From Butyrivibrio sp. MC2013 (lineage in GTDB: Bacteria > Bacillota > Clostridia > Lachnospirales > Lachnospiraceae), in NCBI RefSeq assembly GCF_000424585.1, contig NZ_AUKE01000014.1, positions 1-64,000 of the forward strand: 64,000 bases of DNA. Reading direction: 5' to 3'. Position numbers and translations under genes: made by a program. Under the pieces are notes generated by a model, which saw only the letters and a program-made list of their open reading frames with translations, made no database searches and was not told the origin of the DNA. This document shows positions 38,541 to 58,516 of this stretch, piece by piece; positions within the stretch are counted from its first letter, which is position 1; each line of letters starts with the position of its first letter.

Positions 38541-38680
38541 AAGACTCGGATTGCTCCTGTATGTATATTGTATCATATATTTTACTGAAATTATAGTAAT
38601 CTAGTAAAATACAGATATATTAAAATAGACTAATTGCCAAGCTATCAGTCTCTTGTGTTTTTCTTAAGTAACGCATTCAT

Positions 38681-40160: not shown

Positions 40161-40203
40161 ACCCCGGTTAATCATTGATATGATTCCCGGGGCTTTGTTT
40201 TTT
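40161..40203 (+). terminator. Intrinsic terminator after the 39319 lipoprotein
   Basis: CCCCGG (40162-40167) pairs with CCGGGG (40187-40192); then CTTTG and seven T. It overlaps the 3' end of the leftward AraC gene. Confidence 0.8.
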
Positions 40204-41071
40204 TGGCATATTCTTTTGGCGTACATTTCATATATCTTTTGAATATTTTGGTATAGTAGGCAGGGCTGTTAAAGCCCATTTCTCCGGCAATATGAGTAAT
40301 GCTTTCTCCACGCCTCAGGAGGGAGAGGCTGTTCTGGATACGAAGTGACATCTGGTATTCGATTATGGTAGTATTCATATATTTCTTAAAGAAGCGGCAG
40401 CACTCTTCTTTGCATATATTCACGGAGCCTGCCACATCTACTATACTGATAGGCTGATCAAAGTTTTCCTGGATATATATGAGTATATTCCTTAGTCTGT
40501 CTATATGGCGGTTGACCCTCATATTATCTCCGGGAAGAGAAGAGTAGTAGTCATATAGTATCTGCCAGATCTGCATGCATAGCAGCTGTATTCTGAGTTC
40601 ATAATCCGTAGGAGGCTGCTGGGACAGCCTGTGGATCTCTTTTATTTTATCCAGTATCTCAGCGTGGCGCTGCATATTGGGATCCAGCTTGATGGAATCC
40701 CAGGAGTCGTTCTTGATGATGAAATCCACATATTTGGTCTGCAGGATGCTCCCCTCATAGCCATAAAGGAAGCGGGGGTGAAACTTGATACGAAAGTAGT
40801 AGCAATTGTTCTCACCGTTTTGAAAGCCTGCATGGAGAGCATTGCTGTTTGCAAATAGTCCTTCACCCTCTTTTAGGATATACACATGCTCATTTACCCT
40901 GTATTCCATTTCTCCGGATACAATAAGTGTCAGCTCTATTTCCGGATGCCAGTGCCATAGGAACTTGCCATTCTCGTAGTCCAGTATGGTATCCAGATTG
41001 GTATCCACAGGAAAGCTGTAGTCATTTTTGGATGAAAGCTCTAATTGATATTCATTGGTAAGTATCTGCAT
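40172..41071 (-). CDS. AraC-family regulator of the beta-glucan locus
   Basis: 299 residues. N-terminal cupin sensor with WHWHPEIELTLIVSGEMEY (residues about 38-57) and a C-terminal pair of helix-turn-helix motifs (SIVDVAGSVNICKEECCRFFKKYM and ESITHIAGEMGFNSPAYYTKIFKRYM). Such proteins usually activate adjacent sugar genes on binding an oligosaccharide. It is divergent from the beta-glucan operon starting at 41225, with 153 bases between. GGGGGA favours ATG 41071 over TTG 41086. The inducer is presumably a beta-glucan oligosaccharide. Confidence 0.9.
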   Translation of the reverse strand: MQILTNEYQLELSSKNDYSFPVDTNLDTILDYENGKFLWHWHPEIELTLIVSGEMEYRVNEHVYILKEGEGLFANSNALHAGFQNGENNCYYFRIKFHPRFLYGYEGSILQTKYVDFIIKNDSWDSIKLDPNMQRHAEILDKIKEIHRLSQQPPTDYELRIQLLCMQIWQILYDYYSSLPGDNMRVNRHIDRLRNILIYIQENFDQPISIVDVAGSVNICKEECCRFFKKYMNTTIIEYQMSLRIQNSLSLLRRGESITHIAGEMGFNSPAYYTKIFKRYMKCTPKEYAKKTKPRESYQ

Positions 41072-41129
41072 TTCATATTCCCCCAAAAAGATAATCTCAA
41101 TATCGTTATAAAAATACTCAGTATCTTAA

Positions 41130-41224: not shown

Positions 41225-44128
41225 ATGTTGGGAACTGGCAGGGGGAGCGCGAGAATACTGGCGTGTATCATATCAGCCGGCTTATTGCTGGAGAGCAATA
41301 TGGATGTATATGCTCGGGAGATAGCAGAGGATGAAGAGTTAAAGCAGTACTATACCAGGGTATATGAAAGTATAGATTATAAGGACTACCTGGAAGGCTA
41401 CACAAACGTGTCCCATCCTGAGCATCATATCGTGATCCCCGGCACAGATTACAGCGCAGCTGACTGCGCGGTCAACAGCTCTGACTGGTATGAGGGCAGG
41501 GAAAATGTACTCCTTACTCCCGAGGAAGGGAGTGTAAGCTGGGAGTGTGATATCCCGGAGGGCGGTCTCTACAAGATATTCATAGATTATTATCCCACGG
41601 AAGGAAAGGGCAATACCATTGAGAGGGAGCTGTATATCAATGGACAGATACCTTTTGAAGAAGCGGGGTATCTGGAATTTGTCAGAAACTGGACTTCGGA
41701 AAATCTGCAAAAAAATATAGCTATAGAGCAGGATCCCAGAGGTAATGATATAAAGCCCAGGCAGCTTGAAGAGCCTGTATGGAGAGAGCAGTGCCTGAAA
41801 GACATTGGCGGATATGTAAGTGAAGGCTTTGATTTTTATCTTCAAAAGGGAACTAATACCATCACTCTTAATTCTGTAAGAGAACCTATGGCTATAGCAT
41901 CTCTCAGCATCTGTCAGGCTGATGATATTCCCACTTATGACGAATATATCCTGAATGCGTCAGGCGCAAATGACGCACATCAGACTATCAAGCTTCAGGG
42001 AGAGGACGCCAGGTACAAATCGGAGTCGGTATTGACCCCTGTAAATGACAGGACATCACCCAAAACTGAGCCCTATGATCCTTCCAAGATCAGGATGAAC
42101 GCAATAGGCGGAAGCAACTGGAGCCGTGTGGGACAGTGGATAAGCTGGGAAATAGATGTACCTGAAGACGGCCTGTATGAAATAGCTATCAAATACAAGC
42201 AGGGTATAAAGCAGGGAGCGACAGTGTGCAGGTCCCTGAGGCTGGATGATAAGCTGCCCTTTAAGGAGGCAGGCGAAATAAGCTTTCATTACAAAAATGA
42301 ATGGCAGATCATGAAGCTGGGCCGTGAAGATATTGATTATAAATTCTATCTGACAAAGGGCAGGCACAGCCTGAGCCTGGAGGTGACCCTGGGGCAAAAG
42401 CTCTCGGATATCCTGGATGATGCAGACAGCTCCATAGCTGAGCTTAATACCGCATACAGGCAGCTCCTTATGGTGATAGGCACATCTCCTGATGTTATGA
42501 GGGACTATCAGCTGGAACTAAAGTGCCCTGAGGCTCTGGATACCATAAGAGAGCAGTACGGGATCATAGGTGATCTCTCAAAGAGAGTAGAGGAATATGC
42601 CTGCGGCTCCAAAGCAGGTCAGACAGCAGTTCTGGATAATCTCAGCCTGCAGCTGGGCAATATGACTAAGGATCCTCAGACCATTCCCAAATACTGGTCA
42701 TCCTTTAAGGATAATATCATTGCCCTGGCCTCCTGGTCGCTTAGCATGAAGGAACAGCCTCTTATGATCGATTATCTGATGCTGATGCAGCCCGGAGATA
42801 AGCTTCCGGAGAGCGCAGCAAATATAGGAGAGAAGATAGGCCATGAGGTGAGGGCCTTTGCATCAAGCTTTAGCGAAGACTATGAAAGCATAGGAGATGT
42901 ATATGAGGGCGATCCCCTGGAAGTATGGCTCCTTGCTGATCCGGGAACCGTGGCCGGTAGCTCGGGAAGCGGCCGTGATCAGGCCTCTATCCTAAAGGAC
43001 CTTGTAGATAACTATTTTGTAAGTCAAAAGGATATACCTGTTAATGTCAAGTTGGTAAACAGAGATAATCTCCTCTCAGCTACCCTTGCAGGCAGAGGGC
43101 CTGACCTGGCACTTAGTGTATGGAACAGAGAGCCTGTTAATTATGCTCTTAGAAATGCTGTTGAAGATCTGAGCAGCTATCCGGACTTTGAGCAGGTCAG
43201 GGGACGTTTTATTGACGGGGCTCTTGATATGTTTACCTACGATGGTGGCGTATATGCGCTGCCATACAGTACATCTTTTCCTGTCATGTTTTACCGGGCG
43301 GATATCTTAGAGGAGCTGGGACTAGAGGTACCGCAGACCTGGGACGACTTTTATGCATGCCTTGCAGTGATCCAAAAGAGCAATATGAATGTGGGTATCC
43401 TGCCGGACTATACCTCTTATGGAATGATGCTCTATCAATATGGTGGGGCGTATTACTCAGAGGACGGCAGTGCAAGCGGACTATCTTCCGAAGAGGCAGT
43501 CAGAGCCTTTAGTCAGTGGACAGGTAATTATGCAGATTACAAGATGCCTGTTTCCTATGACTTTGCCAACAGATTCAGAACAGGCGAGATGCCCCTGGGA
43601 ATTGCAGACTATACTGTTTACTCTTATCTGTCTGTATTTGCACCCGAGATCAAGGGCTTATGGGGATTTACCATAGTGCCGGGACATGAGAGAGAAGATG
43701 GTAGTGTGGATCATTCTGTGATTGCAGGACAGATGGCATGCGTAGTCCTTAAGGATTCGGATCACAAGGATGAAGCCTGGGAGTTTCTCAAATGGTGGTC
43801 TTCCTGTGACATACAGACTCAGTATGCAACAGAAATAGAAAATGTACTGGGCGTAGCAGGGCGAGTTGCCACTCCCAATATGGAAGCACTAGAGAACCTG
43901 CCCTGGTCACACAAGGACTTAAAGCAGCTCCTGGCTCAGATGGGAGAGGTACATGTAGTCCCTGAAGTACCCGGTGGATATTTTACAGAGAGACATGTGA
44001 GAAATGCCTTTTATGAAGTATATAACGACAAAGAGGATCCCAGAGAGACTCTTGAAGAGTATGTAAAGACTATAAATAACGAGATCACAAGTAAGAGGAT
44101 CGAGTTTGGACTGGATATAACAAAGTAG
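41225..44128 (+). CDS. Long extracellular solute-binding protein with two beta-sandwich modules
   Basis: 967 residues. Secretion signal (cleavage near VYA-RE) without a lipobox. Two related beta-sandwich modules (about residues 70-240 and 265-400), each with W-x-CDI/IDVPE-G-LYKI/EIAI and GFDFYL/FYLTKG-x-HS segments, resemble galactose-binding-like carbohydrate modules. The rest (about 560-960) is a family 1 ABC sugar-binding domain: FPVMFYRADILEELGLEVPQTWDDF and PGHEREDGSVDH, with AWEFLKWWSS at the end. It would capture a polysaccharide fragment for the permeases that follow. Strong GGGGGGA before ATG 41225. Absence of a visible membrane anchor is unusual for a Gram-positive binding protein. 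Confidence 0.85.
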   Translation: MLGTGRGSARILACIISAGLLLESNMDVYAREIAEDEELKQYYTRVYESIDYKDYLEGYTNVSHPEHHIVIPGTDYSAADCAVNSSDWYEGRENVLLTPEEGSVSWECDIPEGGLYKIFIDYYPTEGKGNTIERELYINGQIPFEEAGYLEFVRNWTSENLQKNIAIEQDPRGNDIKPRQLEEPVWREQCLKDIGGYVSEGFDFYLQKGTNTITLNSVREPMAIASLSICQADDIPTYDEYILNASGANDAHQTIKLQGEDARYKSESVLTPVNDRTSPKTEPYDPSKIRMNAIGGSNWSRVGQWISWEIDVPEDGLYEIAIKYKQGIKQGATVCRSLRLDDKLPFKEAGEISFHYKNEWQIMKLGREDIDYKFYLTKGRHSLSLEVTLGQKLSDILDDADSSIAELNTAYRQLLMVIGTSPDVMRDYQLELKCPEALDTIREQYGIIGDLSKRVEEYACGSKAGQTAVLDNLSLQLGNMTKDPQTIPKYWSSFKDNIIALASWSLSMKEQPLMIDYLMLMQPGDKLPESAANIGEKIGHEVRAFASSFSEDYESIGDVYEGDPLEVWLLADPGTVAGSSGSGRDQASILKDLVDNYFVSQKDIPVNVKLVNRDNLLSATLAGRGPDLALSVWNREPVNYALRNAVEDLSSYPDFEQVRGRFIDGALDMFTYDGGVYALPYSTSFPVMFYRADILEELGLEVPQTWDDFYACLAVIQKSNMNVGILPDYTSYGMMLYQYGGAYYSEDGSASGLSSEEAVRAFSQWTGNYADYKMPVSYDFANRFRTGEMPLGIADYTVYSYLSVFAPEIKGLWGFTIVPGHEREDGSVDHSVIAGQMACVVLKDSDHKDEAWEFLKWWSSCDIQTQYATEIENVLGVAGRVATPNMEALENLPWSHKDLKQLLAQMGEVHVVPEVPGGYFTERHVRNAFYEVYNDKEDPRETLEEYVKTINNEITSKRIEFGLDITK

Positions 44129-44153
44129 ATCTAAGGCGTTGTGCGGGGGAAAA

Positions 44154-45113
44154 ATGGAAGCGGAAAGAAGTAAGAAAAGTCTCTTTTATCTACTATTAGA
44201 AGATATTATGAGCAGATTATCTGTCACATGGAAGGAAGTCAAAAAAGCTAAGGTCTCTTATGCGTTTATTGCTCCTTTTTGCCTGATATTTATCATCTTT
44301 TATCTGGTACCTGTCCTGGTATCCATCGGCCTTAGCTTTACCTACTATAACATCCTGGAAGCGCCCAGGTTTATAGGCTGGCAGAATTATATCAATCTCT
44401 TTTTTGCAGATGATGTATTTCTCATTGCGGTGAAGAATACCTTCTTATTTGCCGTGATCACAGGACCTTTGGGATATTTTGCAGCCCTGATGATTGCCTG
44501 GATGATAAACGAGATCAAAAACCGCTTTATAAGGGCGCTTATGACCCTTGCCTTTTATGCGCCGACTATTTCCGGTCAGGCTTTTATTATCTGGAAATTC
44601 ATCTTTTCCAGTGATGGTTATGGACTGGTCAATGGCTGGCTCATGAAGCTGGGGATCACCTATGAACCTATCCTTTGGTTTGAAGATGCCGGGTATATAC
44701 AGCCGATCCTCATCATTGTAGTCCTATGGATGAGTATGGGTACAGGCTTTCTCTCATTTATAGCAGGTCTTCAGAATGTGGATAACAGCCTTTATGAAGC
44801 CGGTTATATAGACGGAGTCAGGAACCGTTTTCAGGAGCTGTGGTATATCACCCTTCCATCCATGAAGCCTCAGCTGATGTTCGGCGCGGTTATGACTATT
44901 ACTTCATCATTTGCTATACATGATCAGCTGGCAGCACTTGCAGGCTTTCCCAGTGTGGATTATCAGGCCCATACCGTGGTATCTCACCTCATCGATTACG
45001 GCTCCATACGTTTTGAGATGGGATATGCATCAAGTATAGCTACCTTGTTGTTCTTTACCATGATCCTGTGCAACAAGCTGGTCCAGAGATTGATCAGAAA
45101 GGTTGGAGACTAA
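44154..45113 (+). CDS. ABC sugar permease, first pair subunit A
   Basis: 319 residues, six membrane helices of the MalF/LplB type. The EAA loop that contacts the ATPase reads EAGYIDGVRNRFQELWYITLP. ATG 44154 follows GGGGGA; the TTG at 44139 is not needed. It is directly behind the long binding protein and ends one base before the second permease gene. No ATPase gene is present in the locus, so a shared MsmX-type ATPase probably drives it. Confidence 0.93.
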   Translation: MEAERSKKSLFYLLLEDIMSRLSVTWKEVKKAKVSYAFIAPFCLIFIIFYLVPVLVSIGLSFTYYNILEAPRFIGWQNYINLFFADDVFLIAVKNTFLFAVITGPLGYFAALMIAWMINEIKNRFIRALMTLAFYAPTISGQAFIIWKFIFSSDGYGLVNGWLMKLGITYEPILWFEDAGYIQPILIIVVLWMSMGTGFLSFIAGLQNVDNSLYEAGYIDGVRNRFQELWYITLPSMKPQLMFGAVMTITSSFAIHDQLAALAGFPSVDYQAHTVVSHLIDYGSIRFEMGYASSIATLLFFTMILCNKLVQRLIRKVGD

Positions 45114-45989: not shown

Positions 45990-47462
45990 ATGACAAGCAG
46001 GATAAGCCTTTGGCCAAAATACATTATTACAGCAATAATGGCAGCAGTTTTTTGTTTGATCAGTATCAAAGCTAATGCCTCCACAATGCCATATGTTGCC
46101 TACAGTTATGATTGGTGGGGTGATCCGGTTCCGGAACCCTCCCCATATCTGTATGGGGCGACCATAGATAAGGGCAGGATAGGGCAGGCTCTGAACAATC
46201 CTCAGGACTTATTTGAAAAAAACGGAAAACTCTACATTGCAGATACAGATAACAACAGGATCCTCATAGTCACATCTGAGGGAGATTATGTCTCAGAGAT
46301 ATCTGATGGCCTTATGGCTCCCAAAGGGGTATTCGTGACAGATGAAGAACATATATATGTAGCTGATTCCGGTAATGAAAGAATACTGGAATATGATGAT
46401 CAGCTAAAGCTCATCAGGGATATCCCAAGGCCCGTCACCAATCTGATAGGCGCTGATAAAGCCTATATCCCCACCAGGCTGGTAGTGGATAAGGCAGGAC
46501 GTATATATACCATAGCATATGGGATCAATATGGGACTCTTGGAGCTTGATCCGGATGGCAATTTTCAGGGCTTTATGGGAGCTGCCAGGGTAAATGTATC
46601 ACCCTGGGAATATATATGGAAAAACTATTTCTCCACAAGTGCTCAAAAACAGAGAATGGAGACCATAGTTCCCACTGAGTACAGCAATATATTCCTGGAC
46701 GATGAAGGCTTTATATATGCCAGTATCAGTAATCTGTCAAATGAAGATCATATACAGGGCAAGGATGCTCTAAGGCGCCTTAATCCAACAGGCACAGACG
46801 TACTTAGAAGACTTGGCAATTTCCCTGTTACAGGGGACCTGTACAAGTATTATGACGGTGCAGAATGGTCTGAATTTGTTGATGTGGCTGCTACCGATTA
46901 TGGTTGCTATTTTGCCCTGGACAGGGCCGGGGGAAAGGTCTTTGGCTACGACGGGGACGGGAATCTCCTCTTTGTATTTGGTGCAAAGGGCAGCAGGCAG
47001 GGCATGTTCTCCAGTGCTTCGTCACTGGTCCTAAGTGATGATCAAACAAGGTTGTATGTGCTGGATTCCCAGCTGGGTGCTATACAGACCTTTGAGATCA
47101 CTGATTATGGCAGGAATCTCCTGGGGGCTCTAAAGTCCCACTACTACGGCGATTCACAGGGAGCTGACAGGCAGTGGGAGAAAGTGCTTAGCTACAACTC
47201 ACAAAGTGAAGAAGCCTGCATCGGCCTTGGCAAGACCAGGCTCAGAAACGGTGATTACAAAGCTGCAATGAAGTATTTCAAACTGGGGAATTGCAGAAAG
47301 TATTACTCCAAAGCCTTTTGGTTTTACAGAAAAGAATATATGCAGAAGAACTTTGCCAGATATATTCTTCTCATCATTATTCCCTGCGGCATAGCTGCTG
47401 CTGTAACTATCATCAGGAGACTTAGGAAATGGGTAGGTGAAGTGAAGTGCAAAAATATCTAG
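45990..47462 (+). CDS. NHL-repeat protein with TPR and C-terminal membrane anchor
   Basis: 490 residues. N-terminal signal or anchor (about residues 10-30), then NHL beta-propeller blades (LNNPQDLFEKNGKLYIADTD, MAPKGVFVTDEEHIYVADSG, IPTRLVVDKAGRIYTIAYG, YSNIFLDDEGFIYAS), a TPR-like helical pair (SEEACIGLGKTRLRNGDYKA) and a single membrane helix (ARYILLIIIPCGIAAAVTI) before a basic tail. It most likely sits on the outside of the membrane as a scaffold for the ABC importer. ATG 45990 is preferred by AAGGAG spacing. It recurs with Yip1 and DUF5696 genes in other glycan loci of this group, to my recollection; its role is not known. Confidence 0.8.
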   Translation: MTSRISLWPKYIITAIMAAVFCLISIKANASTMPYVAYSYDWWGDPVPEPSPYLYGATIDKGRIGQALNNPQDLFEKNGKLYIADTDNNRILIVTSEGDYVSEISDGLMAPKGVFVTDEEHIYVADSGNERILEYDDQLKLIRDIPRPVTNLIGADKAYIPTRLVVDKAGRIYTIAYGINMGLLELDPDGNFQGFMGAARVNVSPWEYIWKNYFSTSAQKQRMETIVPTEYSNIFLDDEGFIYASISNLSNEDHIQGKDALRRLNPTGTDVLRRLGNFPVTGDLYKYYDGAEWSEFVDVAATDYGCYFALDRAGGKVFGYDGDGNLLFVFGAKGSRQGMFSSASSLVLSDDQTRLYVLDSQLGAIQTFEITDYGRNLLGALKSHYYGDSQGADRQWEKVLSYNSQSEEACIGLGKTRLRNGDYKAAMKYFKLGNCRKYYSKAFWFYRKEYMQKNFARYILLIIIPCGIAAAVTIIRRLRKWVGEVKCKNI

Positions 47463-48070
47463 ATAGTCTGCTATTTGGCTTTCATGTAATATTTCATCCC
47501 TTTGACGGATTCTGGGATCTTAAAAGAGAAAAAAGAGGGACCCTTAAAGCTGCTCTGACCTTTATTGTCCTGACTATTTGCATGTATACGATAGAAAAGC
47601 AGAATACCGGTTTTCTGTTTAATACAAACCGTCTGGAGGAAGTGAATGTATTTGTTGATATCATCACCGTGGGTCTTATGTTTGTCCTTTGGTGTGTATC
47701 CAACTGGTGCCTGACTTCTCTTATGGACGGAGAAGGCAGGATGCGGGATATAGCTATATATACCGCATATGCTGTGATTCCTCTTCTTATCATACAGTTT
47801 CCCCTGGTCGGAGTGAGCCATTTCATCACCCTGGAAGAGGGCACCTTCTATTATGTTTTTAGAAATATCAGCTATATCTGGGCTTTGGCTCTGCTCCTTG
47901 CAGGAATGAGCCAGACTCATCAGTACAGCATGAAAAAGACCTTATTTACCACTCTTTTGACCTTGCTGGGAATGATGATAATCACCTTCATAGCACTGTT
48001 ATTTTTCAGCGTATTGAACCAGATATTCGTATTTGTTTTATCCGTTTATAAAGAGATCAGATTCAGATAG
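47447..48070 (+). CDS. Yip1-like membrane protein
   Basis: 207 residues with five hydrophobic helices, in the Yip1 domain pattern: N-terminal HPFDGFWDLKREKRGTL, then helices with an aromatic-rich centre. Start is GTG at 47447, overlapping the NHL gene by 16 bases, so translation is coupled. It lies between NHL and DUF5696 genes inside the importer operon, suggesting a membrane partner of the NHL protein. No enzymatic motif. Confidence 0.8.
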   Translation: MQKYLDSLLFGFHVIFHPFDGFWDLKREKRGTLKAALTFIVLTICMYTIEKQNTGFLFNTNRLEEVNVFVDIITVGLMFVLWCVSNWCLTSLMDGEGRMRDIAIYTAYAVIPLLIIQFPLVGVSHFITLEEGTFYYVFRNISYIWALALLLAGMSQTHQYSMKKTLFTTLLTLLGMMIITFIALLFFSVLNQIFVFVLSVYKEIRFR

Positions 48071-48085
48071 GGGAGTGACCGGGCA

Positions 48086-50692
48086 ATGATAGATAAGAGA
48101 AGGAATAGGATAATGAACTGCTGCATGGCCCTGATAATAGCAGGAAGTGGCCTTTTGGCAAATGCTATAAAGGCCTGTGCAGATGAGCCCCTTGGCACTT
48201 CTGACAGGCAGCAGGCAGAGGATGTCCTGTCTGATATGTCACTTGTGGCTTCTGACTCTGAGCTGGAGCTATATATAGATCCTGTCACAACAGCTCTTGC
48301 TGTGAGAGTGAAGGCCAGTGATGACTACTGGTTTTCCAATCCACCGGATTGTGATAATGACAGCCTGGCAGGCGAATATTACAAGGGACTGATGAAGTCC
48401 CAGCTTATTATCAATTACTTTAATGACAAGGTCCAGGAACAGACCATGGACAGCTATAACGACTCTACCTTTAAGGGCCAGTTCAGTATAGAAAATATCG
48501 AGGGCGGTGTCAGGGTCTTATATGAAATAGGAGAGCTGACTGACAGGTATGTGGTCCCTGGCATTATCAGCAAGGATCGTTTTGAAAGCTATCTGTCCAA
48601 AATGGATGAAAAAGCAGCCAAAAAAACAAAACGAAATTACTATTACCTGGACCTTGATGAAATGCATAGGGAGTCAGAAAAAAAGGAATACCTGGAAAAA
48701 TATCCTGTTCTAAGTGAATACCCGGTATATGTTCTCAGCGAAGGCGTAAAGGATTACAAGCTGGAAGAGCTTACAGACTATTTTGAAGCTGCAGGCTATA
48801 GCAGAGAGGATATGCAAAATGATAATGCCACTAACGGATATATAAACGAAAATGATAAAGCGTTTTTTTCTATTCCTGTTGAATACCGTATAGAAGATGG
48901 GGATTTTATTGCAGAAATAATACCGGATGAAGTGGAATATGACAGTCAAAGCTTCTATTTGACTACTATTTCCCTGCTTCCATACTTTGGCGCTGCATCA
49001 TCAGGGGAAGAGGGATATATCTTTGTCCCTGACGGATCGGGAGCACTTATTGATTTTGATAATGGCAAGCTATCCGGTACTGCGCCATACCTTGGCTATT
49101 GCTATGGAGAAGACAAGACTGAGCTGGCTGATGATAACAAAAAGTCAGAGCTTGATCAGAAGCTGTCAGTCAAAATGCCTGTATTTGGGATCAAAAAAGA
49201 GGATAAGGCATTTCTGGCGATCATAGAAAAGGGAGATGCAAATGCCACTATAAAGGCGGATATCTCAGGAAGAACAGATGATCAGAATAAGTGCTATGCG
49301 CTGTTTGACTATCTGACCTATGGAAGCGTCACCATGGATGAAGTCCTTGGAGCCAACAGCTTTCAGATCTATTCAAAGCCTGTTTTTCCGGAGAATTACA
49401 AGCTAAGATATGAATTTCTCTATGGGGAAGATGCTGATTATTCCGGCATGGCAAGGTGTTACCGTGACTATCTTTTAAACAGAGATATGTTGGGCTCAAA
49501 AGTGGATAAGGATACTGTGCCTCTGTATATCAGCTTTATAGGCGGGGCTAAGAAGTGGGAATCGGTGCTGGGACTAAAGCACAAAGCGCTGAAAAAGCTG
49601 ACCACCTATGAAGCTGCAAAAAAAGCTGCGCAAGGTCTGATGGATAAAGGCGTAGATAATATCAAAATATCTTATCTTGGATGGACCGGGGGCGGTTATA
49701 AGGGGAGTTCCCCTGTAGCAGCCAAGGCAGCAGGGCTCCTTGAGAGCAAGGGATTATCTATAAAAGAGTTTGGACAGCAGATGAAAGAGCTTGATATCCC
49801 GCTATTTTGGGAAAGCGACTTTCAGTATGTATACAAGGACAAAATCCTGGATGGATATCAGGCAGAAAGACATAGTCCCAGATATTACGATAATACCATA
49901 GTGAATTCATATAAATACATGATCCCCAATAATATGCGGGATAAATCTGCTCCGGAAGCCCATATGATAAGCCCCTATTATCTGGAGGAGATCACAGGGG
50001 ATTACATGAAGGCTACTGCCAAATATGCTCTGGACGGGCTTGGGATAGGTTATCTGGCTTCTGATCTATACGGTGATCACTATGAAGCGCATTACGTGGA
50101 CCGGCAGAGCGCGGTCTATAGAAACAGCCAGGCTCTTGAAACGCTGTCTGAACAATACGAGGGCAGGCTCCTTGGCCAGAATGCCAATGCCTATGGCTTT
50201 AAATATCTGTCAGACATATTGGAAGCTCCTATGGACAGTAACAGGTGCCTGATCATTGACGAGGTGATCCCCTTTTATGAAATGGTCATACACGGATATA
50301 TAAGCTACGCAGGTGATCCCATTAATCTGTCTGATGATATAGAGGGAAGCATATTGAAAAGTGTGGAGTGCGGAGCAGGCTTGTCATATTGCCTTATTAC
50401 TGAAGACAGCTCTGTACTAAAGGATTCAGGCTTTGATGAGCTCTATTCCGTCAGCTTTGACGACTGGGAAGAAAAGATGGTGGATAGCTGGAGTCGTGCA
50501 AACTCTGTGCTGGAGCGGCTGATGGACAAGAAGATCTTAAAGCATGAAAAGCTCATGGATGGTCTCTACCGTACCAGCTACGAAAACGGAGCTTGTGTGC
50601 TGGTCAATTACAACAATACAGACCTGAATATAGACGGACAGACTGTCAAGGCCCGTGATTTTATTCTCGATGAGGGAAATAACTATGAATAA
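48086..50692 (+). CDS. DUF5696 secreted protein
   Basis: 868 residues. Signal peptide (residues 1-32, cleavage near CADE). The centre has the DUF5696 pattern YIFVPDGSGALIDFDNGK followed by a large domain with GGAKKWES, KISYLGWTGGGYKG, FWESDFQY and IDEVIPFYEMVIHGYISYAG, consistent with a TIM-barrel-like glycosidase fold. I know of no characterised member and assign no activity. Asp/Glu at strand ends (SDLYGDHYE, IIDEVIPFYE) would be candidates for catalysis. It overlaps the next permease gene by eight bases. Confidence 0.78.
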   Translation: MIDKRRNRIMNCCMALIIAGSGLLANAIKACADEPLGTSDRQQAEDVLSDMSLVASDSELELYIDPVTTALAVRVKASDDYWFSNPPDCDNDSLAGEYYKGLMKSQLIINYFNDKVQEQTMDSYNDSTFKGQFSIENIEGGVRVLYEIGELTDRYVVPGIISKDRFESYLSKMDEKAAKKTKRNYYYLDLDEMHRESEKKEYLEKYPVLSEYPVYVLSEGVKDYKLEELTDYFEAAGYSREDMQNDNATNGYINENDKAFFSIPVEYRIEDGDFIAEIIPDEVEYDSQSFYLTTISLLPYFGAASSGEEGYIFVPDGSGALIDFDNGKLSGTAPYLGYCYGEDKTELADDNKKSELDQKLSVKMPVFGIKKEDKAFLAIIEKGDANATIKADISGRTDDQNKCYALFDYLTYGSVTMDEVLGANSFQIYSKPVFPENYKLRYEFLYGEDADYSGMARCYRDYLLNRDMLGSKVDKDTVPLYISFIGGAKKWESVLGLKHKALKKLTTYEAAKKAAQGLMDKGVDNIKISYLGWTGGGYKGSSPVAAKAAGLLESKGLSIKEFGQQMKELDIPLFWESDFQYVYKDKILDGYQAERHSPRYYDNTIVNSYKYMIPNNMRDKSAPEAHMISPYYLEEITGDYMKATAKYALDGLGIGYLASDLYGDHYEAHYVDRQSAVYRNSQALETLSEQYEGRLLGQNANAYGFKYLSDILEAPMDSNRCLIIDEVIPFYEMVIHGYISYAGDPINLSDDIEGSILKSVECGAGLSYCLITEDSSVLKDSGFDELYSVSFDDWEEKMVDSWSRANSVLERLMDKKILKHEKLMDGLYRTSYENGACVLVNYNNTDLNIDGQTVKARDFILDEGNNYE

Positions 50693-51593
50693 GAAAATGC
50701 TAATGCCAAAGAAGGAGACCATAGCAGGATACATGTTTATCCTTCCATTCCTCATAGGATTTTTTGCCTTCTTTGTGCCCATGCTCATAAAATCTGTGAT
50801 CTACAGCTTCAGCAATATGACAGTGGAAAGCGGCGGTTATGTCCTGAGCGGTGCTGCATCTAACGGATTTGAACACTATATCAGAGCTCTTTTTATCGAT
50901 CCGGATTATAACAGGGATCTATTAAAGGCTGTAAAGGACATGTTTTTAAATGTGCCTTTGGTGCTTATATTCAGCTTTTTTGCAGCTAATCTCCTTAATC
51001 AGAAATTCAGGGGAAGAGGGATAGCCAGGAGTATATTTTTCTTTCCTGTGATACTCACATCAGGAATACTGATGAGCATAGAAGCTTCTGACCTTCTCAT
51101 ATCCACGCTGGGGCCGGAAAATGCCTTATCCGCAGATGATGCCAATACTGTATTTAACGTGTCTCGTTTTTTGATCGAATATACAGGACTTCCCACAGCC
51201 CTTGTCATGTATCTCTCAAAGTCTGTGCTGGGGATATATGACATAGTAGTGGCTTCCGGTGTGCAGATCCTCATATTTCTGGCAGGACTCCAGGGTATAT
51301 CACCCAGCCTCTTTGAAGCTTCCAATATGGAAGGGGCTACTGCCTGGGAAAACTTTTGGAAGATCACCTTCCCTATGATCAGCCCGCTAATACTGGTCAA
51401 TTCCATCTATACCATCATAGATTCCTTTACCAGTGCGGGGAACGAGCTTATGACTGTCATAAAGAGGACCATATTTACGGATGTGAAATTTGGCTACGGC
51501 TCCGCCATGGCCTGGATCTACTTCCTGGTGATCGCCGTCCTTATCAGCTCCATAAGCGTAGTCGTAGCACGTAAAGTATTCTACATGGATTAA
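50685..51593 (+). CDS. ABC sugar permease, second pair subunit A
   Basis: 302 residues, six helices, EAA loop EASNMEGATAWENFWKITFP. MalF/UgpA-like. ATG 50685 is eight bases after GAGGG and overlaps the DUF5696 stop. A second importer inside the same operon implies two substrates or two sizes of glucan. Confidence 0.92.
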   Translation: MNKKMLMPKKETIAGYMFILPFLIGFFAFFVPMLIKSVIYSFSNMTVESGGYVLSGAASNGFEHYIRALFIDPDYNRDLLKAVKDMFLNVPLVLIFSFFAANLLNQKFRGRGIARSIFFFPVILTSGILMSIEASDLLISTLGPENALSADDANTVFNVSRFLIEYTGLPTALVMYLSKSVLGIYDIVVASGVQILIFLAGLQGISPSLFEASNMEGATAWENFWKITFPMISPLILVNSIYTIIDSFTSAGNELMTVIKRTIFTDVKFGYGSAMAWIYFLVIAVLISSISVVVARKVFYMD

Positions 51594-51607
51594 GAAGGTG
51601 CATGGTT

Positions 51608-52570
51608 ATGAATAAATACAAAGTAAGAATCAGGCTGACACTGCCTGCTATGTCGCGTTTACTCTGGTCAATCGTGAGAGCGGTCATAGTTTTTGGGATA
51701 TGCTTTGTGATCTTATATCCGCTATATCTCAAATTATCCGTTTCCTTTATGGATGAAAAAGACCTATATGATGCGACGGTACATTACGTTCCCAAAAACT
51801 TTACCCTGGATAATTACAAGAGGGTATTAGCTGGCCTTGAATATGGCAGAGCCTTTATAAATACTCTTGCGCTCTCTGCGCTGGTATCAGGCCTGCAGCT
51901 GTTTGCCTGCATGCTCACAGCATACGGTTTTGCAAGGTTTTACTTCCCTGGCAAAAATCTCTTGTTTGCATGCGTGATCTTCACCTTGATAGTACCGCCT
52001 CAGATAGTGATGCTGCCTATGTTCATGAATTTCAGATTCTTTGATCTCTTTGGTCTGTTTAAGAGGGCTATGGGACACAGTCTGAATCTCATAGACACTC
52101 CCTGGCCCCTGATCATACAGGCTATGACCTGCATGGGCTTTAAGAACGGGCTCTATATCTACATGCTGCGGCAGTATTTCAAGGGCCTGCCAAAAGAGCT
52201 GGAAGAGGCTGCCTTTGTGGATGGCTGCGGAAGATTTCGCACCTTTATCCAGATCATGCTCCCCAGCAGCGTGCCTATGATGGTCACAGTCTTCCTGTTT
52301 GGATTTGTATGGCAGTGGACCGACTCTTTCTACGTGGGTATGTATCTGCCAAAGGCCTGCCTCTTCTCCAATCAGCTCAGCTCCCTGGCTCAGGTCATGG
52401 CAAGGCAGTACCAGAATATGAGCGGCAGCATGAATTTCGTCAGTCCCGGCTTTGCATCAATGGTCAATAATACCGGTTCTATACTCATCATGCTTCCTCT
52501 TATCATATTGTATCTCTTTTGCCAGAGCTACTTCGTAGAGGGAATCGAACGCTCCGGCATCGTGGGATGA
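51608..52570 (+). CDS. ABC sugar permease, second pair subunit B
   Basis: 320 residues, MalG-like, EAA loop EAAFVDGCGRFRTFIQIMLP. ATG 51608 has AAGGTG seven bases upstream; ATG 51602 is an alternative. It probably works with the 50685 permease and the binding protein at 53548. Confidence 0.92.
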   Translation: MNKYKVRIRLTLPAMSRLLWSIVRAVIVFGICFVILYPLYLKLSVSFMDEKDLYDATVHYVPKNFTLDNYKRVLAGLEYGRAFINTLALSALVSGLQLFACMLTAYGFARFYFPGKNLLFACVIFTLIVPPQIVMLPMFMNFRFFDLFGLFKRAMGHSLNLIDTPWPLIIQAMTCMGFKNGLYIYMLRQYFKGLPKELEEAAFVDGCGRFRTFIQIMLPSSVPMMVTVFLFGFVWQWTDSFYVGMYLPKACLFSNQLSSLAQVMARQYQNMSGSMNFVSPGFASMVNNTGSILIMLPLIILYLFCQSYFVEGIERSGIVG

Positions 52571-53547: not shown

Positions 53548-55047
53548 ATGAAGAAGAAAATCGTGGCACTGGTGTTGTCCACCGCGCTAACGGCTTGTGC
53601 TGTGGCTTGCGGGGGCGAGGCAAAAAAGGATGAAGCAGCAAATTCAGGGGAGGAGTCGCTTGCTGCTAATGAAGCTATAGAAGAAGAGTCTTCTGAAACT
53701 CCTCAGGCTTCAGAACCGGAAGAGGAAGAAGAGACGGAAGAGACCTATGACTTTGGGGGAAGGGTTGTAAGGATCGGTTCGTATTATGACATGACTCCCG
53801 ATCCCTCTCAGAATGAGTTTTCAAGAGCTTACTCAGAGAGGATCAAATATGTAGAGGACAACTATAACTGCAAGATCGAGTTTGTAAATCTTGGAGAGGA
53901 TTACGAGAAGGCCTATATCACTTCTGTACTGTCAGGTACTCCTGTGTGTGATGCGGGATATATCCTGACCTACAGGCTCCTTCCTTCTCTTATAGAGGGA
54001 GGTATTGCATATCCTATAAGTGATCTGGGCGTGATAGATTTTACAGAACCTCAGTATTCCCAGCCTGTAACAGAGGCTTGCACATACAAGGGCAAGGTAT
54101 ATGCTCTGGCTCAGACAAGTGCAGAATGCCGTTACGGCATCTTCTATAACAAGACTCTCTTTGAAAGGTACAATCTTCCTGACCTTTATGAGCTTTATAC
54201 CAAGGGTGAATGGAATTGGGACAAGTTCAAGGAGATAGCCCTGGCAGGCAATCAGGATCTGGACGGAGATGGCGAATATGATATCCACGGTTTCAATGAG
54301 AGACTGAGTCTGGCATGGAACTATATGGCTTCCAATAATGCAGATGCTGTTAAGAGCACAGATGCAGGTATTGAGCTGGCTCTTGAGACTCCTGAAGCTA
54401 TGCAGGCTCTTGAAGCCTATGCTGATTTTATGCAGAATGTGCCTCACCTTAGCGGCTGGCTGGGCGACTGGCAGAGCCAGATCTGGGACTTTAGAGATGG
54501 CAATTCCTGCATGTGTCTCGAAGAGTGGTGGATCGCTCCCGAGTATCTGGATGAAATGGAAGATGATTGGAGCTTTGTTCCCTTCCCTATTGGACCAAAC
54601 GGCAGCGAATATGTTTCCTATGGTAAAGAATCATCACCCCTTATGATTCTCAACGGAATAGAAAAGCCTGAAGAAGTGGCACAGATCATAGACCTGATCT
54701 ATCAGAGCTTCGAAGATGAAGAAGATTGGAATGATGCTATCGAAGCAAAGTTTGAAGCAGATGCAGATGATGCAGGTGCTGTAGAAGTAGTAATGGATCT
54801 GAAGGATAAGATACAGATCTCACCTATCCTTGGCTTTTCAGAGCTGGATTCTATGGTAAATGAGATGCTGACCACTATTGAATATGGTGAAAATACACCT
54901 GCCAATGCGCTTGAGAGCTACAGATCATCTCTTGAGGCTGCGGTAGAAGATATTAAGACCCATGATTATTCCAATGATCTTCAGGAAGAGATATCTGAAG
55001 AGGAGGCTGCGGAATCTGAAGAGGATACATCAGAGTCCGATGACTGA
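53548..55047 (+). CDS. ABC solute-binding lipoprotein, second importer
   Basis: 499 residues. Lipobox AVAC near residue 21, an acidic linker to about residue 70, then a family 1 sugar-binding fold (FGGRVVRIGSYYDM, ECRYGIFYNKTLFERYNLPD, WNWDKFKEIA). Last 20 residues are again very acidic. It likely feeds the second permease pair with glucan fragments. RBS GAAAGGAAAAGAAGG precedes ATG 53548. A terminator at 55095 follows, so binding protein should exceed downstream GH3 expression. Confidence 0.9.
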   Translation: MKKKIVALVLSTALTACAVACGGEAKKDEAANSGEESLAANEAIEEESSETPQASEPEEEEETEETYDFGGRVVRIGSYYDMTPDPSQNEFSRAYSERIKYVEDNYNCKIEFVNLGEDYEKAYITSVLSGTPVCDAGYILTYRLLPSLIEGGIAYPISDLGVIDFTEPQYSQPVTEACTYKGKVYALAQTSAECRYGIFYNKTLFERYNLPDLYELYTKGEWNWDKFKEIALAGNQDLDGDGEYDIHGFNERLSLAWNYMASNNADAVKSTDAGIELALETPEAMQALEAYADFMQNVPHLSGWLGDWQSQIWDFRDGNSCMCLEEWWIAPEYLDEMEDDWSFVPFPIGPNGSEYVSYGKESSPLMILNGIEKPEEVAQIIDLIYQSFEDEEDWNDAIEAKFEADADDAGAVEVVMDLKDKIQISPILGFSELDSMVNEMLTTIEYGENTPANALESYRSSLEAAVEDIKTHDYSNDLQEEISEEEAAESEEDTSESDD

Positions 55048-55141: not shown

Positions 55142-57376
55142 GTGCAAAAGCAAATGATAGAGGCAAAGCTCAAAGAACTAATAGAAGATATGTCGGTGGA
55201 GGAAAAAGTCGGGCAGCTCGTGATGCTGGAAGGCTCCTATTTTGAAAAAGATGCTCTGGTGACGGGGAATATCAATGAAAATAACTGCGATACAGAATCG
55301 TTAAAAGCCTTTGCCGGCAGTACTATTGGGATATCCGGAGCGGAAACGGTTCGCTCCATCCAGAAAAAGCAAATGGAAGATCAGCCTCATCACATCCCCA
55401 TGCTATTTATGCTGGATGTGATACATGGCTATCGCACCGTTTTTACCTGTCCTTTGGGACAAGGTGCATCCTTTGATCCTGAAATGTCCCGGAAATGTGC
55501 AGAGATTGCTGCCAGAGAGGCCGCTGCGTCCGGGATACACATTGTCTTTTCTCCCATGGCTGACCTGGTAAGGGATTCCAGGTGGGGAAGAGTCATGGAA
55601 TCTACAGGCGAAGATGTATATCTAAACGGCAGGATGGCATCTGCCATGGTAAAGGGTTATCAGGGTGATAATGCAGGCGATCCTCTTAGAGTAGGTGCAT
55701 GTGTAAAGCATTTTGCAGGCTATGGAGCTCCTGTAGCCGGCAGGGAATATTACAATGTGGAGTTGTCTGAGCATACCCTTAGAGAATATTATCTGCCTGC
55801 TTACCAAAAGGCAGTGGAAAGCGGCTGCGAGATGGTAATGAGTGCTTTTAATACCTGGAACGGTATCCCCTGCTCAGGCAACAGATGGCTGATGAAAGAT
55901 GTACTAAGGGACGAGATGGGCTTTGATGGTGTAGTCATATCTGATTGGGGTGCTGTTGCAGAGATGACCATGCACGGCTTTTGTAGGGATAATAGGGAAG
56001 CTGCCGGGGCTGCACTTAAGGCCGGAGTGGATATTGATATGTGCGGCAATGCTTATGCGGAGCATCTTGCAGAGCTTGTGGCTAAAGGGGATATAGACAG
56101 CTCGCTACTGGACGAGGCGGTAATGAGAGTGCTAAGGCTCAAGAATAAGCTGGGGCTTTTTGAGAACCCTTATAAAGATGCGGATATCAGGCTGGAGAGA
56201 GAGATAATACTCTCTAAGGAGCATAGAGAACTGGCCAGGGAAATGGTGAGAAAATCTATAGTTCTATTGAAAAATGATAAATATGATGACGAAAATGTCC
56301 TTCCTTTGAAAAAGGGAAAGCTGGCATTTATCGGACCGTATGTGGATAATGCTGACATGGACAGCTCCTGGGCTGTAAATGGAGATGTCCTTGATCAGAT
56401 CAGTATAAAAAAGGCTGCGCTGGAATTCTGGGATAAAGGTGACCTTCTCTTTGCAGATGGCTGCACAATGCTGGATAATCACACTGTCGGTGCCAGATAC
56501 TACTATGAGGATGAGGCTTTTTGCAGCAAAAATGACTCTTTGTTAAAGCAGGCAGTGGAAGCGGCCAAATGCGCGGATACGCTCGTGTTGTGCCTGGGCG
56601 AACACAGGGCTCAAAGCGGCGAAGCATCCAGCAGGGCCCGGATAAAGCTTCCAAAGGTACAGCTTAATCTCCTTAGGGAACTGGCAAGGAGCGGCAAAAC
56701 GATAATAACGCTTATATTCAGCGGAAGGCCTCTGGAACTTGAAGAGATATTAAAATATTCTCATGCCGTAATGATGGTTTGGCTCCCCGGCACAGAAGGT
56801 GGGCACGGGATAATGGATGTGCTTACAGGTAAGCACAATCCATCAGCCAAGCTCCCCATTAGTATTCCCTACAACGAGGGCCAGCTTCCCATCTCTTATG
56901 ATCAGTATTCAACAGGACGCCCCCGCACAGGCATTCATACGGGGGAATATACCTCGGGCTATATTGATGTGCCCAACGAGCCGCTGCTTCCTTTTGGATA
57001 TGGGCTTAGCTATACAGACTTTAATATATCTAAGGTGAGTCTATCCTCTGATCATATGCTTGAAGATGGTACGATAACTGCCACTGTCAGGATCTCTAAT
57101 CAGGGAGATGTGGAGGGTACAGAGACTCTCCAGTTATACCTGCAGGATGTGGCAGCGAGCAGAGTCCGTCCTATCCTTCAGCTAAAGGGCTTTAAGAAGA
57201 TCAGCCTGAAAGCAGGTGAGGAGAAGCTTGTAAGCTTTTGCATCAGCAAAGAGCAATTATCTTTTATCAGGGCTGATGGCAGCTACGGCTGTGAAGAAGG
57301 GATCTTTAGACTTTGGATAGATAATAGCAGCAAGGTAAAAGAGCCTGTGACCTTTGAGCTTATAAAGAAAGGCTGA
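55142..57376 (+). CDS. GH3 beta-glucosidase, cytosolic
   Basis: 744 residues, domains GH3 N (1-300), GH3 C (about 365-590) and Fn3-like (about 650-730). Nucleophile D268 in VISDWGAV; KHFAGYGA and RE-x-Y-x-x-ELS-x-HTLRE are substrate-binding segments. No signal peptide, so it hydrolyses imported beta-glucan oligosaccharides to glucose. Start appears to be GTG 55142 just after GAGGACG; ATG 55154 is possible. It closes the beta-glucan locus. Confidence 0.93.
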   Translation: MQKQMIEAKLKELIEDMSVEEKVGQLVMLEGSYFEKDALVTGNINENNCDTESLKAFAGSTIGISGAETVRSIQKKQMEDQPHHIPMLFMLDVIHGYRTVFTCPLGQGASFDPEMSRKCAEIAAREAAASGIHIVFSPMADLVRDSRWGRVMESTGEDVYLNGRMASAMVKGYQGDNAGDPLRVGACVKHFAGYGAPVAGREYYNVELSEHTLREYYLPAYQKAVESGCEMVMSAFNTWNGIPCSGNRWLMKDVLRDEMGFDGVVISDWGAVAEMTMHGFCRDNREAAGAALKAGVDIDMCGNAYAEHLAELVAKGDIDSSLLDEAVMRVLRLKNKLGLFENPYKDADIRLEREIILSKEHRELAREMVRKSIVLLKNDKYDDENVLPLKKGKLAFIGPYVDNADMDSSWAVNGDVLDQISIKKAALEFWDKGDLLFADGCTMLDNHTVGARYYYEDEAFCSKNDSLLKQAVEAAKCADTLVLCLGEHRAQSGEASSRARIKLPKVQLNLLRELARSGKTIITLIFSGRPLELEEILKYSHAVMMVWLPGTEGGHGIMDVLTGKHNPSAKLPISIPYNEGQLPISYDQYSTGRPRTGIHTGEYTSGYIDVPNEPLLPFGYGLSYTDFNISKVSLSSDHMLEDGTITATVRISNQGDVEGTETLQLYLQDVAASRVRPILQLKGFKKISLKAGEEKLVSFCISKEQLSFIRADGSYGCEEGIFRLWIDNSSKVKEPVTFELIKKG

Positions 57377-57427: not shown

Positions 57428-57597
57428 AGTCAAAAGATCCGATATACAGTATGAGATAGGTGTAAAAGTATCCTTTGGCACCTATTCATAGTGTATTTAT
57501 TTGGAGCCTTATCTGTTATTTATCTCATAAGCAGTAATAGGAGGGCTTCACGTCGAAAAGGATTTCGGCGGGCACCATCAACAAGGAGGTGGATTAT

Positions 57598-58479
57598 ATG
57601 AGTTCTATACAAGGTCTATCTGCATATCAGCAGACCGGCAGATCCTGGCAGGCTGGAAGTACAGGCAAGGCAGGAAGCACTGCTGCGTCCTCGAAAGCGG
57701 CAGAAACAGCTTCCAAGACGGCTGTGGAGACAAAGCCCTGGACGCCGCTGGATAGCGCAAGTTCCCTGGTTCCCAGACAAACTGAATATGGTAATACCAT
57801 AGGCGATGTACAGCTGTCTGATAAGGCAAAGTCTTATTATGAACAGCTCAAATCCAAGTATCACAACCTGGAATTCATTGCTGTGAGTGGGGCTGTCAAG
57901 GATCAGGTGCAGAAGAATGCTGCATCCTATGGTAATGCCAATAAGATGGTAGTCCTCATTGATGAGGAAAAGCTGGAGAAAATGGCAACAGATGAAGCCT
58001 TCCGTAAGAAATACGAGGGCATCATAGCCATGTCCTCAGCCAAAATCTCCCAGCTTGGCAAAAGCCTTCAGGGTAGCGGCTCACCTGTCACAAACTTTGG
58101 AATGTCTGTGGGAAGTGACGGAAGAGAGAGCTTCTTTGCCACAGTAGACAAGAGCTTTGAGGCTCAGAACAAGATGGCCGAAAAGCGCGCTGCCAAAAAG
58201 AAGGAAGAAAAGGCTAAAGAGAAAAAGCTGGAAGAGAAGAAAACGGCAGAAAAACGTCTGGAGAAGGCAAAAGAAAAGAAAGCTGGTGAAGCCGGTGAAG
58301 CTGATGATGATACAAAGGCTGAAGGTGTAGCAGAAGAAAGGGAGTACGGCATCATAGAGGCAGGTTCTGTGGATGAGCTTTTGTCCAAGGTACAGACCTA
58401 TTCCTATAACAATTCCATGAACCATGTAATGGCTGATTCTGAGCGTATGCTTGGCGGACATGTGGATTTCAAGGGCTGA
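57598..58479 (+). CDS. DUF6033-family protein
   Basis: 293 residues. An N-terminal Ser/Ala/Gln-rich region, a globular centre (KSYYEQLKSKYHNLEFIAVS, NKMVVLIDEEKLEKMATDEAFRKKYE, VTNFGMSVGSDGRESFFATV), then a Lys/Glu/Ala-rich coiled coil (about 195-235) and a C-terminal ADSERMLGGHVDFKG. I recall this pattern as DUF6033, common in Lachnospiraceae and of unknown role. No signal peptide. AAGGAGGT seven bases before ATG 57598 is near perfect, implying high expression. It forms a pair with the coiled-coil gene 37 bases downstream. Confidence 0.78.
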   Translation: MSSIQGLSAYQQTGRSWQAGSTGKAGSTAASSKAAETASKTAVETKPWTPLDSASSLVPRQTEYGNTIGDVQLSDKAKSYYEQLKSKYHNLEFIAVSGAVKDQVQKNAASYGNANKMVVLIDEEKLEKMATDEAFRKKYEGIIAMSSAKISQLGKSLQGSGSPVTNFGMSVGSDGRESFFATVDKSFEAQNKMAEKRAAKKKEEKAKEKKLEEKKTAEKRLEKAKEKKAGEAGEADDDTKAEGVAEEREYGIIEAGSVDELLSKVQTYSYNNSMNHVMADSERMLGGHVDFKG

Positions 58480-58516
58480 GCTTTATGAGCTCTTTATCAG
58501 AGCAGGGAGAATTTAG

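What the first reader, a model, noticed from the sequence alone, without database searches (positions are those of the whole stretch)
45990..50692. NHL-Yip1-DUF5696 trio embedded between two ABC permease pairs
Three genes of unknown role sit inside a beta-glucan import operon with overlapping frames: an extracellular NHL/TPR protein anchored at its C-terminus, a five-helix Yip1-like protein, and a large secreted DUF5696 protein that may have a glycosidase-like fold. Their placement suggests an accessory machine for handling long beta-glucans at the membrane, linking GH16 cleavage to the importers. This is the best candidate here for an undescribed system.
Basis: partly seen in the sequence, partly recalled or inferred. 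Interest (0 to 1): 0.8.

Follow-up and report, generated by a model that had tools for sequence, protein, structure and literature searches.

The report
Twin sugar importer with accessory trio
A widespread but apparently undescribed bacterial gene block joins two sugar importers to three accessory proteins, one of which looks like a sugar-cutting enzyme that has mostly lost its cutting residues and may now hold the sugar for uptake.

Summary
The three genes are real and lie between two ABC permease pairs. They are not special to this operon. In 199 DUF5696 loci, six-frame profile searches found an NHL domain in 193 and a Yip1 domain in 195; NHL and Yip1 are one fused protein in 84 of 198 distinct loci, as in this genome's second copy. 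The whole block SBP1–permeases A,B–NHL–Yip1–DUF5696–permeases C,D stands in 131 of 198. Neighbouring enzymes vary widely, so 'beta-glucan' fits only this copy (GH16 and GH3).

The parts
40172..41086 (-). AraC-type regulator, divergent from the operon
   Evidence: Pfam HTH_18, AraC_binding
41225..44128 (+). SBP1: 967-aa solute-binding protein; about 580 N-terminal residues ahead of the SBP domain
   Evidence: SBP_bac_1 at 585-860; weak Golvesin_C match below cut-off
44139..45113 (+). Permease A
   Evidence: BPD_transp_1 45.7 bits; EAA loop
45103..45984 (+). Permease B
   Evidence: BPD_transp_1 44.8 bits; EAA loop
45981..47462 (+). NHL propeller-TPR protein with membrane segments at both ends (start possibly 45990)
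   Evidence: Pfam NHL; hydropathy; model of the fused relative P0125
47447..48070 (+). Yip1-family membrane protein, five hydrophobic segments
   Evidence: Pfam Yip1 57.1 bits; hydropathy
48086..50692 (+). DUF5696 protein, GH129-type fold; GH129 nucleophile maps to Y656 (or D660), acid/base to Q698
   Evidence: Pfam 591.1 bits; model and fold search; mapping
50655..51593 (+). Permease C (true start may lie downstream of 50655)
   Evidence: BPD_transp_1 20.8 bits, below the Pfam cut-off of 26.4; EAA loop; NCBIfam MalF/UgpA-like matches below cut-off
51602..52570 (+). Permease D
   Evidence: BPD_transp_1 49.5 bits; EAA loop
52648..53493 (+). GH16 enzyme, lipoprotein-like N-terminus, EIDICE motif at residue 152
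   Evidence: Pfam GH16 78.2 bits; sequence
53548..55047 (+). SBP2, lipoprotein-like N-terminus
   Evidence: SBP_bac_1 44.3 bits; sequence
55142..57376 (+). GH3 enzyme without an evident signal sequence
   Evidence: Pfam GH3 N, C and Fn3-like domains; sequence

Best explanation
A dual glycan importer. SBP1 with permeases A/B, and SBP2 with permeases C/D, form two carbohydrate (CUT1-type) ABC importers that borrow a MalK-type ATPase encoded elsewhere. Between them the NHL propeller-TPR protein and the Yip1 protein act as one membrane unit (one polypeptide in many relatives) that scaffolds the importers and presents the propeller outside. DUF5696, a secreted or anchored relative of the GH129/GH101 alpha-glycosidases, sits there as a glycan-binding, mostly non-hydrolytic receptor that holds the chain for the SBPs. 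In this copy the surface GH16 makes beta-gluco-oligosaccharides and the GH3 finishes them inside. Shown: gene content, conserved order, fusion, DUF5696-GH129 homology, absence of the mapped catalytic pair in most members, coupling loops in all four window permeases, one MalK-type match off-operon. Inferred: physical complex, glycan binding, hand-over, substrate.
For: NHL in 193 and Yip1 in 195 of 199 loci, anywhere in the locus; 84 of 198 with NHL-Yip1 fused, 90 adjacent; 175 of 198 followed directly by C,D, 131 of 198 with the whole block. In 249 genomes, 20 of 21 with a strong NHL-Yip1 match also have full-length DUF5696. The genome's only two Yip1 matches are in its two modules. Distances of NHL+Yip1 and DUF5696 correlate at 0.97 over 6786 pairs and 0.98 over 39 same-genome pairs. 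GH129 fold and homology. Catalytic pair acidic at both positions in 9 of 68, strictly D+E in 3 of 68; D and E in 12 of 12 NagBb-like controls. G532-W533 kept in 60 and 61 of 68. EAA loops; one OB_MalK match, on another contig. Varied enzymes beside the block.
Against: No interaction, binding or growth data. The correlations are high for every pair of parts (0.90-0.99 within genomes), so they show joint inheritance, not contact. The nucleophile mapping has confidence 6 of 9, and a direct GH129 alignment gives column 660 instead, D in the window. D656 is kept in 27 of 68, and E761 (65 of 68 acidic), D725 (58) and D664 (53) are well kept, so an altered active site is possible. 52 of 189 permeases labelled C lack my EAA pattern.
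Confidence: 0.42

Rival explanations
1. DUF5696 is an active glycosidase with a changed active site that trims glycans at the cell surface before import; NHL-Yip1 anchors it near the permeases.
For: GH129-type fold; E761 acidic in 65 of 68, D725 in 58 of 68, D664 in 53 of 68; strict D+E at the mapped pair in 3 of 68 and 9 of 99; D656 in 27 of 68.
Against: Neither mapped catalytic position is acidic in the window protein; E761 and D725 also stand in L117 beside the ordinary pair, so they look like pocket residues; the same protein goes with very different enzymes.
Confidence: 0.27
2. NHL-Yip1 is an assembly or quality-control factor for the four permeases and DUF5696 rather than part of a working uptake complex.
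For: Tight coupling with the permease genes; Yip1 proteins elsewhere are linked with membrane trafficking (recalled).
Against: Ordinary CUT1 importers assemble without it (general knowledge); the outward propeller and DUF5696 suggest work outside the cell.
Confidence: 0.13
3. The trio is a sensor that reports glycan binding to regulators of the locus.
For: Extracellular propeller joined to a multi-helix membrane domain; regulators are common neighbours.
Against: The regulators seen are ordinary AraC, LacI and two-component types; no kinase or DNA-binding domain in the trio.
Confidence: 0.08
4. No special machine: two ordinary importers and three independent accessory proteins merely kept in one operon.
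For: High correlation of all parts can come from operon inheritance alone.
Against: Repeated NHL-Yip1 fusion and near-universal presence with DUF5696.
Confidence: 0.1

Closest known systems
GH129 / GH101 alpha-glycosidases (NagBb 5WZN, ZgGH129 5OPQ/8RZK, EngBF 2ZXQ)
   Same: Fold and full-length homology of DUF5696
   Different: Mapped catalytic pair mostly absent, not acidic in the window protein; extra N-terminal parts; always met here with permeases and a membrane pair, except the sibling subfamily L117-L119
CUT1-type carbohydrate ABC importers (MalFG, UgpAE type)
   Same: Two permease pairs with EAA loops, two SBPs, ATPase off-operon
   Different: Two full pairs in one conserved block with a membrane trio between them; SBP1 of 967 aa
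Gram-positive polysaccharide utilization loci (PMC5320581) and the Blautia producta mixed-linkage glucan locus (PMC10318527), passages read
   Same: Enzyme, transporter and regulator together; GH16 and AraC in both beta-glucan loci
   Different: The Blautia locus is described with one SBP, permease and ATP-binding gene set; the passages mention no NHL, Yip1 or DUF5696
SusCD systems of Bacteroidota (recalled)
   Same: Possible analogy only: surface glycan capture feeding an importer, many substrate-specific copies per genome
   Different: No outer membrane and no homologous parts

Membership tests
GH129 glycoside hydrolase | GH129 fold | tested here: met
GH129 glycoside hydrolase | Sequence homology to characterised members | tested here: met
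   Profile hits to GH129 chains E 6.9e-5 to 5.3e-4; hhalign E 2.7e-14
GH129 glycoside hydrolase | Catalytic Asp nucleophile and Glu acid/base | tested here: not met
   Window Y656 and Q698 through the L117 bridge; the nucleophile could instead be D660, but Q698 is a high-confidence match to the acid/base
GH129 glycoside hydrolase | Match to Pfam PF11308 | tested here: not met
   No PF11308 match of the window protein at E 0.001; none in the whole genome
DUF5696 (PF18952) | Score over the curated cut-off | tested here: met
   591.1 bits, cut-off 25.6
Yip1 (PF04893) | Score over the curated cut-off; several membrane segments | tested here: met
   57.1 bits, cut-off 28.6; five segments
NHL repeat (PF01436) propeller | Repeat score over cut-off and six-bladed fold | tested here: met
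CUT1-type ABC importer | Two permeases with EAA loop plus SBP | tested here: met
   permease C is below its Pfam cut-off but has the loop
CUT1-type ABC importer | Dedicated or shared MalK-type ATPase | tested here: inconclusive
   One OB_MalK match, on contig C26; sharing not shown
Gram-positive polysaccharide utilization locus | Degrading enzyme, carbohydrate transporter and regulator in one locus (PMC5320581 passage) | tested here: met
   GH16, two importers, divergent AraC gene
Beta-glucan-specific system | Beta-glucanases as the regular neighbours | tested here: not met
   3 GH16 and 15 GH3 proteins in 199 loci; many other families

The most novel reading that the evidence does not exclude
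A general Gram-positive glycan-capture machine: two ABC importers physically braced by an NHL-Yip1 membrane scaffold, with a catalytically retired GH129-type glycosidase as glycan receptor, retuned copy by copy to different plant, fungal, algal or host glycans; the functional counterpart of SusCD in bacteria with one membrane.
Probability: 0.3. Interest if true: 0.88.

Novelty: new variant of a known kind. Interest (0 to 1): 0.68.

Why it matters
DUF5696 is over its cut-off in 59 of 200 family genomes and 39 of 398 phylum genomes, two family genomes carry six full-length copies each, and the trio has no assigned role. If it is a shared capture machine it would help explain how bacteria without an outer membrane take up large or branched glycans, give a marker for glycan loci in gut and soil bacteria, and offer a clear case of a glycosidase turned into a binding protein, with sibling proteins that keep the catalytic pair.

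Tried and rejected
Beta-glucan specificity as a rule: rejected, kept for this copy. Trio unrelated to sugar transport: rejected. Permeases C/D uncoupled from an ATPase: not so in the window, all four have the EAA loop. My first pattern was one residue too long and found none; with the right one 2 of 160 A, 6 of 166 B, 52 of 189 C and 16 of 179 D proteins still miss it, not followed up. Yip1-DUF5696 fusion in L019 (1101-aa ORF): no Yip1 or NHL match in that ORF. DNA repeat inside SBP1: none. Promoter/terminator scan: 46 promoter-like sites against 36.4 expected, 13 terminator-like against 15.3, no use made of it. PDB sequence search with the single DUF5696 protein: no match. PF11308 was found in 6 of 150 family and 1 of 398 phylum genomes, so a deep GH129 alignment was not to be had; 12 NagBb-like sequences were used. 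L204 and L222 were left out of that set as not close to NagBb, L220 gave no match. Other phyla were not examined. 39 loci lack either the trio directly upstream or C,D directly downstream by my ORF calling; from the listing most are contig ends or antisense ORFs preferred by my caller; real exceptions are L117, L118, L119 (another subfamily), L073 (order changed), and perhaps L040 and L038, where no NHL gene stands beside Yip1.
Full report
OBSERVATION. On the + strand the window holds SBP1 (41225), permease A (44139), permease B (45103), an NHL protein (45981), a Yip1 protein (47447), a DUF5696 protein (48086), permease C (50655), permease D (51602), GH16 (52648), SBP2 (53548) and GH3 (55142), behind a divergent AraC gene. 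The trio scores over the Pfam cut-offs. Hydropathy fits an NHL protein with a membrane segment at each end, a five-segment Yip1 protein and a DUF5696 protein with one N-terminal segment.

SECOND COPY AND FUSION. The genome has one more full-length DUF5696 gene, on contig C5. The protein just upstream carries NHL and Yip1 domains in one chain. The only two Yip1 matches in the genome are those of the two modules. A database search with the fused protein found 445 relatives; of the 120 listed I count 113 with both Yip1 and NHL Pfam domains.

NEIGHBOURHOOD SURVEY. DUF5696 is over its cut-off in 59 of 200 family and 39 of 398 phylum genomes. I fetched 70 loci of full-length hits of the family search (the genome's own second copy included), 45 of the phylum search (ten further full-length phylum hits were not fetched) and three shorter relatives, L117-L119, plus 80 named loci, mostly Paenibacillus and Cohnella, the best 80 of 527 confirmed stretches. 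With the window that is 199 loci, 198 distinct (L075 and L185 are the same). Profiles were seeded from the window proteins and iterated, so labels depend on them. Directly upstream of DUF5696, NHL and Yip1 are fused in 84 and adjacent in 90 of 198; permeases C,D follow directly in 175; SBP1-A-B precede in 139; the whole block stands in 131. Much of the shortfall is contig ends or antisense ORFs chosen by my caller. By six-frame profile search an NHL domain is in 193 and a Yip1 domain in 195 of 199 loci, counted anywhere in the locus. Without Yip1: L113 (contig end), L117, L118, L119. Without NHL: those four, L183 (contig end) and L040.

REVERSE TEST. In 249 phylum genomes a profile of the fused protein gave strong matches (E below 1e-27) in 21; 20 of these also have full-length DUF5696, the other is a 284-aa frame in G441; 29 more genomes have only short generic NHL matches (at most four candidates scored per genome). 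All full-length DUF5696 genomes with handles up to G449 are among the 21. I take the 249 to be part of the draw because the handles coincide; the list of genomes without a match was cut.

UNITY OF THE BLOCK. Spacing is tight (DUF5696/C median -4 nt, 173 of 186 within 20 nt; NHL/Yip1 -8, 87 of 91) and wider before SBP2 (median 89.5); the first possible start was used, so overlaps are overestimated. Over 6786 pairs from the 117 whole-block loci that also have an SBP2, distances of NHL+Yip1 and DUF5696 correlate at 0.97, either with C/D at 0.93-0.95, with A/B at 0.88-0.93, with SBP1 at 0.94-0.95; SBP2 is lowest (0.76-0.88). Over 39 pairs of copies within one genome NHL+Yip1 and DUF5696 reach 0.98, but all core pairs are at 0.90-0.99. 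This shows joint inheritance, not contact.

SUBSTRATE. Proteins beside the block include GH38, GH36, alpha-fucosidase, GH31, arabinofuranosidase, GH95, GH2, GH106 and GH10, GH43, GH42, GH5, GH67, a rhamnogalacturonan lyase and a pectic lyase (74 of 99 mid-sized representatives, top 25 of 120 families shown). Window-seeded profiles found 3 GH16 and 15 GH3 proteins in 199 loci. So the block is a general platform; GH16 (EIDICE motif) and GH3 point to a beta-glucan here only.

CATALYTIC PAIR. NagBb D435 and E478 (numbers and roles recalled; D and E do stand at these positions in the alignment) are D and E in 12 of 12 NagBb-like sequences. L117 and L118, DUF5696-like proteins without a trio, keep both; their alignment with DUF5696 has E 1.4e-40. 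Through them the acid/base falls on column 698 (confidence 9 of 9) and the nucleophile on column 656 (6 of 9). The window has Q698 and Y656. Of 68 diverse DUF5696 proteins both are acidic in 9, strictly D+E in 3, neither in 20; of the 99 nearest the window, 10, 9 and 29. Against this, direct alignment to GH129 puts the nucleophile on column 660 (D in the window); 660 and 698 are both acidic in 6 of 68 and 24 of 99. Either way an intact pair is not general. The best kept acids are E761 (65 of 68), D725 (58) and D664 (53); L117 has E761 and D725 equivalents beside the ordinary pair, so I take them for pocket residues. G532 and W533 stay in 60 and 61 of 68. I read this as a binding pocket that has mostly lost its chemistry; an altered active site is not excluded.

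KNOWN OR NEW. 'DUF5696' is in none of the 5.39 million papers held. Six more searches aimed at the block listed nothing that describes it, by titles and abstract starts; two further searches were on GH129 and pseudoenzymes. Passages of four papers were read. Most subscription journals and all preprints are outside this library. The locus fits the published definition of a Gram-positive polysaccharide utilization locus, with an apparently undescribed dual-importer core.

VERDICT. Observation confirmed; interpretation partly supported. The strongest new points are the near-universal link of trio and importers, the NHL-Yip1 fusion, and DUF5696 as a GH129 relative whose catalytic pair is mostly lost.

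Noticed in passing
L117:8614-10296 and L118:8617-10371: DUF5696-like proteins of 560-584 aa without NHL or Yip1 in the locus; L117 stands beside one permease pair and an SBP. Both keep the GH129 catalytic Asp and Glu: likely active siblings.
   Followed up: partly
L119:8992-10881: Close relative of the Bifidobacterium alpha-N-acetylgalactosaminidase NagBb (E 2.1e-266) next to an SBP and a permease pair in a genome of the window's family; 11 more relatives of at least 53% identity were seen in other family genomes.
   Followed up: partly
window 41225-42970: The roughly 580 residues ahead of the SBP domain of SBP1 have no Pfam match over cut-off, only weak Golvesin_C hits; SBP1 of about 1000 aa recurs in the block.
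   Followed up: no
window 37272-38576 (-): OrfB_IS605/TnpB-type transposase-associated nuclease with Cas12f1-like TNB domain.
   Followed up: no
window 57589-59641: Two genes after GH3: one DUF6033, one of 374 aa without a Pfam match.
   Followed up: no
G000 contig C26:19351-19521 (-): The only OB_MalK match of the genome, so one ATPase may serve several sugar importers.
   Followed up: no
L186:14445-16166 (+): A 574-aa protein with ricin-type lectin domains beside the block; its cluster has nine members in nine loci.
   Followed up: no
L046:8977-11193 (-): The genome's second DUF5696 differs at the mapped sites (G656, D698; Y at 664), so the two copies of one genome have different pockets.
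   Followed up: partly
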